From Pseudomonas grimontii (GTDB lineage Bacteria > Pseudomonadota > Gammaproteobacteria > Pseudomonadales > Pseudomonadaceae): 64,000 nucleotides of DNA. Shown here piece after piece: positions 46,846 to 52,571 of the stretch; within the stretch, counting starts at the first letter, position 1, and every line of letters starts with the position of its first letter. The notes beneath the pieces were generated by a model. The model had not been told where the DNA came from, ran no database searches, and saw only the letters and a list, made by a program, of their open reading frames with translations. The position numbers and the translations under genes were made by a program. The DNA is taken from NCBI RefSeq assembly GCF_007858185.1, contig NZ_VFES01000001.1:744001-808000 (forward strand), given 5' to 3'.

Positions 46846-47874
46846 CTACTCGATTCCGGGGTTGCTCTCCCCAAAGATAGATGAAGGCTCGGGATCGAGA
46901 ACAATGAGGCGTGAGCGGGTCCAGTCCCAACCATTTCCCCGGCTGTCCACGTACCGGTCGTTTTCCAGCAGCCAGCGTAAATTGCCCGCACAGATCCGAC
47001 CCAAGCCATCCAGGTACATGCCGATACGATCGGCATCCGGGCGATTGGCGTAGCGGTGACGCAGCACTTCGCAGAGTTCCATGCGGGTGCGATCAGCCTC
47101 GCGGATACGCTGGCACAGGATATCAGCAGCTTCCTGCGGGCTATGACCATGCGCCATGCGCAGGCTTTCCATTGCATTGAGGGTCACGCCGATGGCGTGT
47201 TCCTTGCGGTGCGACAGGAGGTCGTTGACCAGGCCGACGTGTTCATTGGTAACCCGGATGGCCAACTGCAGTTCGCGGTCTTGCGCCAGTAGCTCGGTCA
47301 GATCGAGGCCATACAGAAACTCGGCGACAGGGAAATAGGGCAGGAGGCCTGTGTTCGGGTGGCGCAGCTCGAGGAATTCGTCGAATGGCAGCACCTTGCC
47401 GGCCGCGACTAGCCTGGCTTCTTCCTCCACGCTTTCGAACCAGGCCTGCCACTCTCGGCAATAGCGGCGATACACCGGTGCGGGCATGTGCTGCCGCAGT
47501 TTGCCAAAGATGTCTTGTGCGGCATGGGCGAAAGGATGCCCGTCCAGCAACGCGATTTCGCCGTCATGGAATATCGCATGCCGGCCCAGGGGCATATCGT
47601 CGATGGCCAGGACAAGGCTTGTCACGCATGAGGTAAGGACGATGCGATCTGCTGGTCCAATAGGGAATATCAGGCTGTCCCACATGGGAAGACGAAGCCG
47701 CAGAAAGCGCAGCCGTGCGGCCTCATCGGTGAACGGAAGGAACTCGCGGACCCAGGCGGCATTGAGTTCGTCGATGGTGGGATAGTCCGGGTGAATCCTC
47801 GGGAGCACGCTGCAGTACATCTCCGGGATGTAGAAGCTCACCTCGGGCGCGAAGTCTTGTGCAGAATGGTTCAT
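46846..47874 (-). CDS. terpene synthase family protein (SodD-like position)
   Basis: This 342-residue class I terpene synthase has N217-D-x2-S221-x3-E225 (VNDLLSHRKE), which matches the NSE/DTE metal triad. The first aspartate motif is degenerate: AIDDMPLGRH (92-99) has Asp92 and Asp93 but no third acid. DRYVDSRGNGWDW (about 306-318) replaces the usual RY pair region. It is last in the idi-dxs-methyltransferase-methyltransferase operon, so its substrate is probably a C-methylated prenyl diphosphate rather than FPP. The start follows AGGAGCG (minus strand), about 15 bases after the previous gene. The product cannot be read from sequence. Confidence 0.9.
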   Translation of the reverse strand: MNHSAQDFAPEVSFYIPEMYCSVLPRIHPDYPTIDELNAAWVREFLPFTDEAARLRFLRLRLPMWDSLIFPIGPADRIVLTSCVTSLVLAIDDMPLGRHAIFHDGEIALLDGHPFAHAAQDIFGKLRQHMPAPVYRRYCREWQAWFESVEEEARLVAAGKVLPFDEFLELRHPNTGLLPYFPVAEFLYGLDLTELLAQDRELQLAIRVTNEHVGLVNDLLSHRKEHAIGVTLNAMESLRMAHGHSPQEAADILCQRIREADRTRMELCEVLRHRYANRPDADRIGMYLDGLGRICAGNLRWLLENDRYVDSRGNGWDWTRSRLIVLDPEPSSIFGESNPGIE

Positions 47875-47889
47875 GGTTCGCTCCTCACA

Positions 47890-48810
47890 CTAGCGTTTGC
47901 ACGCGATGAAACTGAATGAAGACGCCTTGTTTTTTCGCAAAGCGTCCGAAAAGTTAATTGCGATATCCCGCAACTCGGAGAAATTGGGATTGCGGCTGTC
48001 GGGGTAGTGCGCGTCAAGGTTGTCCTTGACGAGCCCGTACCAGCGAATCACATCCTCGTTGGAGGGGGTGATGCGTCTGTCGATAACTTCAAAGCCGTTG
48101 TCCTCCAGCGCTTTTTGCAAGCTATCCGGTGTCTTGCGATGGCCTGAGGCGGCGCGATCCACCTTGTCGGGGATGAACGACTGGTAGGTCGCCAAGTCCA
48201 CTGTGTAGAGACTCTCGGAAATGATCACCGTGCCGTCGGTGCGCATGCGTTGTGCCAGCGATTGCATGGTTTCTTGCAGCACCTGCGGTGTGAAGTGGAA
48301 GAGGCTGCCTCGGAAAATGGCGAGGTCGTAGGGCAGCTGCGGATCAGGTAGAGCACCGATGTCCTTGGCATTGCAAAGGTACAGCCGAATCCTGTCGGCC
48401 AAGTTGCGGGAGATCGTCTGGCTGGCAAACTCCAGCTGAGGGCGACTGACGTTGACACCGTCGATGCGCTCGCAGTGTGGGTAGCGTTTGGCCAGGAAAC
48501 TAAGCACCGGCCCCCAGCCGCATCCGATGTCGATGGCCCTACGGATGGATTGCGAAGAGACGTCTGCACCAGCCTGTTCGGCCAGTTCGAACTGGTGCTC
48601 CATGTGCCGCCGCCCGGACGCGTCGAGCGCAAGGCTGTTCGGATCCATCTTCTCGTCGAACACGCCGTACTGATACCAGAACTCATTGCCTATCACCTTC
48701 CGCCATTCTTCTGGAGGATCGGCATAGACGCTTTCGATCTTGCTCTGGTAGTGGTCGGCTGTGGAGCTGCGGATGACGTCGATAGCGATCTTACTCTCGT
48801 GTGCTGGCAT
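47890..48810 (-). CDS. prenyl-diphosphate C-methyltransferase (SodC-like), second of the pair
   Basis: This 306-residue SAM methyltransferase has motif [10 protein letters not shown] (about 92-100), [13 protein letters not shown] as post-motif II, and [17 protein letters not shown] shared with its upstream neighbour. The two are clearly paralogues. In Serratia, SodC methylates and cyclises farnesyl diphosphate to presodorifen diphosphate. The ATG at 48808-48810 has AGGAGAG at a good distance and gives an N-terminus matching the paralogue. An alternative ATG at 49003-49005, also with GGAG, would add 65 residues; see findings. Confidence 0.85.
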
Positions 48811-51850: not shown

Positions 51851-52007
51851 GCTCGATTCCCTTCCGTGGATGTTGCTCCGGTGCGCTGGCTGAAGAAGCA
51901 TTCAGTGCAAGCGGTTGATGACCCGATCGACCAGGCCATGCAGCGGGTCGGTTCTACCAGGCAGGAAGACCATCCGCTGGCGGTTGTTCATGGCGTGTTT
52001 CTTGTGA
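51851..52007. other. 157-base gap between idi and dxs
   Basis: This spacer is longer than the other gaps in the operon, which are 15-27 bases if the second methyltransferase uses its upstream start. An open frame MNNRQRMVFLPGRTDPLHGL (minus strand, about 51902-51988) lacks a ribosome binding site. No hairpin with a T tract was seen, so read-through from idi to dxs is likely but a second promoter is possible. Confidence 0.4.
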
Positions 52008-52571
52008 TCAGGAAAAGGAAACAGCCCGACGGCGGAGTTCTGCGAGTTCTTTCCAGGCGCTGACCCTGGCAGTTCCAGTGGCCTTGAGTATTCGACGGAA
52101 CCAGAAGGTGAAGCCCTCGGGGGCAGCGCCAATGCGCTCGGCGATTTGCGAAGTCGTCAGCCATTGCCAGGCATGGGCTTGCGCGGGGGTGGCAACGGGA
52201 TTGCAATCGCTGATACCGGCGAATATGTGGTCGAACTCGTGTTCGATCAGTTGGTTTGAAACCTGTTCTCGGTAAAGCAGAGTGGAGACTTTACGCAGCG
52301 AGCAAGTCATGCCCATTTCTTCCTGCAAGCGGCGTTTTGCCGCCGCCGGTGTCCGTTCGCCAAGTCGAGGGTGTCCGCAACAGGTATTGGTCCACAGACC
52401 TTGAGAATGGTATTTGCCGAAGGCGCGTTGTTGCAGTAAGAGACGGCCGGCATGATCGAAAATGAAGATCGAGAACGCTCGGTGCAGAAGGCCTTGTCGA
52501 TGGGGCTGTAGTTTGGGGACACAGCCCTTTTTGCGATCGCGCTGGTCGACCAGAATCAGTAACTCTTCCAT
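52008..52571 (-). CDS. idi: type 1 isopentenyl-diphosphate delta-isomerase (SodA-like)
   Basis: Idi interconverts isopentenyl and dimethylallyl diphosphate. The 187-residue Nudix-fold enzyme keeps the active-site Cys65 (NTCCGHP), Glu112 (IEHEFDHIF) and metal ligands His24, His30, His67 and Glu110. Pseudomonads do not need Idi because IspH makes both isomers, so its presence in this cluster signals a demand for a tuned DMAPP/IPP ratio. It is the first gene of the operon. A promoter candidate lies at 52720-52747. Confidence 0.94.
   Translation of the reverse strand: MEELLILVDQRDRKKGCVPKLQPHRQGLLHRAFSIFIFDHAGRLLLQQRAFGKYHSQGLWTNTCCGHPRLGERTPAAAKRRLQEEMGMTCSLRKVSTLLYREQVSNQLIEHEFDHIFAGISDCNPVATPAQAHAWQWLTTSQIAERIGAAPEGFTFWFRRILKATGTARVSAWKELAELRRRAVSFS

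What the first reader, a model, noticed from the sequence alone, without database searches (positions are those of the whole stretch)
46846..52571. Five-gene homoterpenoid cluster: idi, dxs, two C-methyltransferases, terpene synthase
The gene content is that of the Serratia sodorifen cluster (SodA Idi, SodB Dxs, SodC FPP methyltransferase, SodD terpene cyclase) but with two methyltransferases. From memory, P. chlororaphis O6 has a two-methyltransferase version that makes the C17 terpenoid chlororaphen by consecutive methylation of FPP. The sequence shows all five genes on one strand with complete catalytic motifs in Idi, Dxs and both methyltransferases. The inference is a methylated sesquiterpenoid volatile, C16 or C17. 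Whether it is sodorifen-like, chlororaphen-like or new cannot be told from sequence.
Basis: partly seen in the sequence, partly recalled or inferred. Interest (0 to 1): 0.92.

Follow-up and report, generated by a model that had tools for sequence, protein, structure and literature searches.

The report
Known two-methyltransferase C17 terpene cluster
This Pseudomonas gene set makes an unusual 17-carbon scent-like terpene by methylating a common 15-carbon precursor twice; it matches a cluster already worked out in the laboratory, with fossils of lost genes beside it.

Summary
The five genes are real, in the order idi-dxs-MT1-MT2-TS on the minus strand. They match the pgrABCDE cluster of Pseudomonas grimontii DSM 17515 (PMC13022886, 2026), which makes the C17 terpene grimophan: same order, MT1 313 aa and MT2 306 aa like PgrC and PgrD, the rare DDMPLG motif at 92-97, and a convergent 405-aa methyltransferase-like gene (= PgrF length) just past the synthase. 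Additions made here: (1) the cluster sits between two convergent core genes that are direct neighbours in 6 of 9 relatives and in both other Pseudomonas carriers; (2) the MT1-MT2 spacer is a gene fossil of a Rieske oxygenase, intact in one relative, plus a probable third-methyltransferase start; (3) the same genome holds a second, decayed locus with broken methyltransferases but two open terpene synthases, which the window's enzymes might feed. The core is already known; the additions are modest and testable.

The parts
52008..52571 (-). idi (PgrA-like), isopentenyl-diphosphate isomerase type I, 187 aa
   Evidence: NF002995 149.7 bits (cut-off 127), TIGR02150 111.5 (105.8); 81% to G083, 85% to GM18
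50018..51850 (-). dxs (PgrB-like), cluster copy of DXP synthase; ATG at 51850 taken, ORF open to 51901
   Evidence: TIGR00204 761.6 bits; another dxs at G000:C7, 56-63% identical; 89% to G083
49049..49990 (-). MT1 (PgrC-like, group I), FPP C-methyltransferase/cyclase by homology, 313 aa
   Evidence: 85.8% to PDB 24ux, 72.3% to VbFPPMT 24uw; group I side of the tree; length equals PgrC
48811..49048 (-). MT1-MT2 spacer: gene fossil, remains of a Rieske oxygenase and of a probable third methyltransferase start
   Evidence: matches the G083 spacer with its Rieske gene (score 59) and the GM18 spacer (133); maximum 27 in 100 shuffles for each
48949..49000 (-). 52 bp alignable to the Rieske oxygenase gene of G083
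   Evidence: 43 of 52 identical
48816..48951 (-). stretch shared with the GM18 spacer; the GM18 copy encodes a start peptide like MT1 residues 17-27
47890..48810 (-). MT2 (PgrD-like, group II), gamma-presodorifen-diphosphate methyltransferase by homology, 306 aa
   Evidence: 91.7% to PDB 9sm3; group II side of the tree; length equals PgrD
46846..47874 (-). TS (PgrE-like, group B terpene synthase) with DDMPLG at 92-97 and NDLLSHRKE at 217
   Evidence: 91% to G083, 89% to GM18, 77% to V. boronicumulans
45602..46819 (+). pgrF-like protein (Pfam Methyltransf_32), 405 aa, convergent to TS; a core gene that did not move with the cluster
52572..52700 (-). about 130 bp upstream of idi conserved with G083 and GM18 (moved with the cluster; likely leader/promoter, inference)
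   Evidence: consensus promoter scan found nothing here
52785..53735 (-). eamA-type transporter, other flank of the insertion site

Best explanation
This is the pgr (grimophan-type) cluster of P. grimontii or a very close relative. Dxs and Idi probably raise the supply of C5 units; FPP comes from the cell (both inferred). MT1 methylates FPP with SAM and cyclises it to gamma-presodorifen diphosphate (C16). MT2 adds a second methyl to give alpha-prechlororaphen diphosphate (C17). The group B synthase cyclises this to a volatile C17H28 hydrocarbon, most likely grimophan. PgrF, a core-genome methyltransferase-like protein encoded next door, may raise the yield without transferring a methyl. The enzyme steps are shown in the paper for PgrC-F, not here; their assignment to the window is by homology. 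The cluster was inserted between two convergent core genes and its lineage has lost an oxygenase gene (inference from the spacer).
For: Same order as pgrABCDE with pgrF downstream (text of PMC13022886). Lengths 313, 306 and 405 equal PgrC, PgrD and PgrF; DDMPLG at 92-97. The paper says that of 12 clusters only the two P. grimontii ones have a group III methyltransferase, and that the cluster lies in the pgrF locus as an exception; the window shows this. MT1 and MT2 lie on the two sides of a 100/100 split of a 21-sequence tree, with solved relatives on each side. The same genes occur at 81-91% identity in G083, at 85-90% in GM18 (which lacks dxs), and at 72-77% (MT1, MT2, TS) in V. boronicumulans, whose MT1 is almost identical to VbFPPMT.
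Against: No Pgr protein sequence was available (supplement not readable), so identity to PgrE was not measured. The paper reports that synthases 88.5% identical give different products, so grimophan cannot be deduced from homology alone. The paper found similar yields in E. coli without pgrAB, so the supply role of Dxs and Idi is not shown. The paper's claim that PgrF helps is not tested here; its adjacency is explained by the insertion site alone.
Confidence: 0.85

Rival explanations
1. A C17 cluster of the same kind whose synthase makes a product other than grimophan (chlororaphen A or a new C17 hydrocarbon).
For: Synthases 88.5% identical make grimophan or chlororaphen according to the paper; window TS is 91% and 89% identical to G083 and GM18 synthases of unknown product.
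Against: The locus architecture and three protein lengths match P. grimontii.
Confidence: 0.12
2. A sodorifen-type C16 cluster in which only one methyltransferase works.
For: Gene content apart from MT2 is that of sodABCD; MT2 follows a fossil spacer and its frame is open into that debris.
Against: MT2 is full length, 91.7% identical to a solved enzyme, keeps its start and ribosome-binding stretch, and TS has the group B motif instead of DDxxD.
Confidence: 0.03
3. A decaying cluster that is no longer expressed: relative to G083 it lacks a Rieske oxygenase between MT1 and MT2, a second Rieske, ispH and ispG, and GM18 and the second locus of this genome have lost genes too.
For:: repeated gene loss in the family; no promoter-like site above chance; low native abundance in P. 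grimontii per the paper.
Against: All five genes are open, and about 130 bp upstream of idi is conserved; the paper found the product in the native host.
Confidence: 0.08

Closest known systems
pgr cluster, Pseudomonas grimontii DSM 17515 (grimophan), PMC13022886 (abstract, introduction, results, discussion read)
   Same: gene order, two methyltransferase groups, DDMPLG synthase, lengths of PgrC/D/F, position beside pgrF
   Different: no difference found, but sequences were not compared. The text says both that pgrF is downstream of pgrABCDE and that the insertion is 'immediately upstream' of pgrF; in the window the two face each other tail to tail, 26 bp apart
chlororaphen cluster, P. [quoted passage not shown] the original paper was not seen)
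   Same: two-step methylation and group B synthase; in V. boronicumulans NBRC 103145 TS 77%, MT1 72%, MT2 72-73%
   Different: the NBRC 103145 locus also has three more synthase-like stretches (one in two frames), four Rieske matches, ispH and ispG, and dxr-like and prenyl-synthase-like ORFs recognised by eye
sodorifen cluster sodABCD, Serratia plymuthica (passages of PMC6366047)
   Same: idi, dxs, FPP methyltransferase, synthase
   Different: one methyltransferase, C16 product; per PMC13022886 the group B synthases are only 20-22% identical to SodD (not measured here)
G083 cluster (unnamed Pseudomonas, L026)
   Same: idi, dxs, MT1, MT2, TS in the same order, 81-91% identical
   Different: keeps a Rieske oxygenase between MT1 and MT2 and a second Rieske, ispH and ispG after TS; its pgrF is on another contig

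Membership tests
pgr/chlororaphen-type C17 terpene cluster | one group I methyltransferase (FPP methyltransferase/cyclase) | tested here: met
   MT1 on the same side of the 100/100 split as VbFPPMT and 24ux
pgr/chlororaphen-type C17 terpene cluster | one group II methyltransferase | tested here: met
   MT2 on the other side of the split, 91.7% to 9sm3; that 9sm3 is the P. chlororaphis enzyme is my guess, no call says so
pgr/chlororaphen-type C17 terpene cluster | group B synthase with DDMPLG at 92-97 | tested here: met
pgr/chlororaphen-type C17 terpene cluster | C17H28 product (m/z 232) | not testable with these tools
   needs GC-MS
pgr cluster of P. grimontii itself | cluster inserted beside a pgrF gene | tested here: met
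   pgrF-like gene 45602-46819, 405 aa
pgr cluster of P. grimontii itself | near-identity to deposited PgrA-F | not testable with these tools
   those sequences were in nothing that I could read
sodorifen (sodABCD) cluster | single methyltransferase and DDxx(x)D synthase | tested here: not met
   two methyltransferases; DDMPLG instead of DDxx(x)D

The most novel reading that the evidence does not exclude
The genome carries two homoterpene loci. In the second (G000:C43, about 94.0-97.5 kb) idi, MT1 and MT2 are broken but two terpene synthases stay open. The window's MT1 and MT2 would supply their C16/C17 diphosphates in trans, so that one strain makes grimophan plus one or two further homoterpenes from a shared precursor pool.
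Probability: 0.25. Interest if true: 0.6.

Novelty: already known. Interest (0 to 1): 0.36.

Why it matters
The cluster explains how a pseudomonad breaks the isoprene rule to make a C17 volatile; its 2026 paper calls grimophan only the second FPP-derived C17 framework. The new parts matter in two ways. The fossil spacer indicates that the lineage of this bare-hydrocarbon cluster once also held an oxygenase, so oxidised C17 terpenoids from G083-type clusters are a target for discovery. The second locus gives a direct test of precursor sharing between unlinked terpene loci.

Tried and rejected
Rejected: a lipid or ubiquinone methyltransferase reading (scores far below cut-offs). Rejected: PgrF as a gene that travelled with the cluster; it was found in 9 of 12 other same-genus relatives and 0 of 6 genomes of other genera, and in G083 and GM18 it lies next to eamA, apart from the cluster. 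Uninformative: the plasmid collection search (82 records, all 60-80% identity; in the 20 rows listed only the dxs stretch matched). Inconclusive: decay of the second-locus synthases. TSb deviates at 4 of 82 columns invariant in 8 relatives, the other rows at 0-3; among five closer rows it deviates at 18 of 172 columns (10.5%), G696 at 16 of 170 (9.4%), the three Variovorax rows at 3.1-7.8%. So it is at the top of the range both times, but DDEYCD and the xDIxSYxKE residues are intact. TSa has Gly where its one compared relative has Ser in the NSE-type motif. Inconclusive: promoter scan (2 found, 2.4 expected, neither upstream of idi). The genus search for TSb found no close Pseudomonas relative (28 of 398 hit at 1e-10, best outside this genome 37%), so no selection test on near orthologues was possible. 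Naming the genome was not possible; the genome-contig scan may leave out near records.

Full report
What is there. Five genes lie on the minus strand in the order idi, dxs, MT1, MT2, TS. The gaps are idi-dxs 157 bp (to the ATG at 51850), dxs-MT1 27 bp, MT1-MT2 238 bp and MT2-TS 15 bp, consistent with one operon (inference from spacing). Family searches agree with every assignment. The cluster has 58.3% G+C against 61.4% for the window. Another dxs lies elsewhere in the genome, 56-63% identical, so the cluster copy is probably a dedicated supply gene (inference; the paper found similar yields in E. coli without pgrAB).

Comparison with the published cluster. Of PMC13022886 I read the abstract, introduction, results and discussion, not its conclusions or supplement. 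It describes pgrABCDE from P. grimontii DSM 17515 as idi, dxs, group I methyltransferase, group II methyltransferase and group B synthase, with pgrF downstream. A figure legend gives PgrC 313, PgrD 306 and PgrF 405 residues; the window proteins have 313, 306 and 405. The motif DDMPLG is at 92-97 in both. The paper says that of 12 clusters only the two of P. grimontii have a group III methyltransferase, and that the pgr insertion beside pgrF is an exception. The window shows this arrangement. I therefore take the window to be P. grimontii or a very near relative; no tool named the genome. PMC6366047 (passages) already listed P. grimontii among hosts of sod-like clusters in 2019. 'Grimophan' occurs in one paper of the library, the JACS paper.

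Methyltransferases and synthase. Against solved structures, MT1 is 85.8% identical to 24ux (253 of 295) and 72.3% to VbFPPMT 24uw (214 of 296); MT2 is 91.7% identical to 9sm3 (275 of 300). In a tree of 21 sequences the MT1 and MT2 groups are parted by a 100/100 branch; inside the groups 8 of 18 inner branches are drawn open, so finer order is unsure. The V. boronicumulans MT1 from locus L050 is almost identical to 24uw, which ties the set to a named FPP methyltransferase. The window synthase is 91%, 89% and 77% identical to those of G083, GM18 and V. boronicumulans; all four have DDMPLG.

Distribution. The group B synthase was found at high identity in 2 of 398 genus genomes, own included (9 of 398 had any match at E up to 0.001). 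The genome-contig scan gave two loci, Pseudomonas sp. GM18 and V. boronicumulans NBRC 103145 (18 stretches matched a pattern). MT2 matched at 1e-30 in 3 of 398 phylum genomes: own, G083 and G696. In the genus of V. boronicumulans 3 of 101 genomes have MT2 at 70% or more; 77 of 101 had some match at E up to 0.001, the rest of these weak and partial.

Insertion site. The cluster lies between the 3' ends of pgrF (+) and eamA (-), which are 5,965 bp apart in the window. In 9 relatives fetched around pgrF, eamA is the tail-to-tail neighbour in 6, with 2-135 bp between the aligned ends; in 3 (L032, L034, L035) no eamA match was found there. In G083 and GM18, which carry the cluster elsewhere, pgrF and eamA are also neighbours. 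About 130 bp upstream of idi is shared with G083 and GM18, and beyond that similarity falls off. PgrF's place beside the cluster thus follows from where the cluster landed, as the paper also proposed; its gene is convergent with the operon and so not part of it.

Gene fossil in the spacer. In G083 a Rieske oxygenase (Pfam Rieske and KshA_C) lies between MT1 and MT2, and a second Rieske, ispH and ispG follow TS. The window's 238-bp spacer keeps 52 bp of that Rieske gene (43 identical; local score 59, maximum 27 in 100 dinucleotide-preserving shuffles) and a stretch shared with GM18 (133 against 27). GM18 keeps the stretches that match residues 1-55 and 378-402 of the 409-residue G083 frame, which begins upstream of the start codon; its deletion has other ends than the window's, so I infer two losses. 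The shared stretch in GM18 encodes a start peptide matching window MT1 over 11 residues (8 identical; 0 of 2000 shuffles reach the score), while its matches to four other methyltransferase starts are weaker (1750, 55, 31 and 21 of 2000 shuffles reach them). I read it as the start of a lost third methyltransferase, with moderate confidence. Word searches of the main text of PMC13022886 found no 'Rieske', 'oxygenase', 'hydroxyl' or 'oxidation'. PMC6366047 notes a Rieske protein in other sod-like clusters. Library searches for Rieske with sodorifen (2 papers; passages of one read, the other seen in the listing only) and Rieske with homoterpene and methyltransferase (1 plant paper, listing only) showed no report of this fossil; the supplement was not seen.

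Second locus. At G000:C43, about 94.0-97.5 kb, the genome has a broken idi joined to a broken MT1 (idi piece 71%; MT1 N- and C-terminal pieces 69% and 81% identical), two open synthases (TSb 348 aa with DDEYCD; TSa 377 aa with DDEFCD; both Pfam Terpene_syn_C_2) and an MT2 with an internal stop and no C-terminus (64%). TSb is 68% identical to G696 and 58-62% to Variovorax homologues. With its own methyltransferases broken, this locus could use C16/C17 diphosphates from the window's cluster. Against this, the synthases may simply be younger ruins: TSb is at the top of the range in both decay counts.

Verdict. As a system it is already known. The interest left lies in the lost oxygenase and the orphan synthases.

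Noticed in passing
L076:10050-13541 and 10701-12978 (G000:C43, outside the window): Second, decayed homoterpene locus: broken idi, MT1 and MT2 around two open terpene synthases.
   Followed up: partly
window 48811-49068: Spacer debris is in frame with MT2 (ORF open to 49068), so an automatic gene caller could give MT2 a spurious N-terminal extension of 65 or 86 residues.
   Followed up: yes
L026:7540-17784 (G083): Fuller cluster with two Rieske/KshA_C oxygenases, ispH and ispG; a candidate for an oxidised C17 terpenoid.
   Followed up: partly
L025 and L050 (Variovorax boronicumulans NBRC 103145): Chlororaphen-type locus with four synthase-like stretches, four Rieske matches, ispH and ispG, more than chlororaphen needs; dxr-like and prenyl-synthase-like ORFs recognised by eye.
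   Followed up: no
L024:6961-9064 (Pseudomonas sp. GM18): Cluster without a dxs match and with a mostly deleted Rieske gene.
   Followed up: partly
L081, L083, L084 (unnamed Pseudomonas): idi, dxs, ispH, synthase-like and ispG genes together, with no MT1 or MT2 match in the fetched stretches; ispG 82-85% identical to that of G083.
   Followed up: no
L082:5845-9253 (G044): MT1-like (61%), synthase-like (26%), Rieske-like (43%) and partial idi matches: another possible homoterpene locus.
   Followed up: no
window 46500-52850: Nine terminator-like sites against 4.7 (sd 1.6) expected, none tested; one lies on the + strand at 52667-52687 upstream of idi.
   Followed up: no
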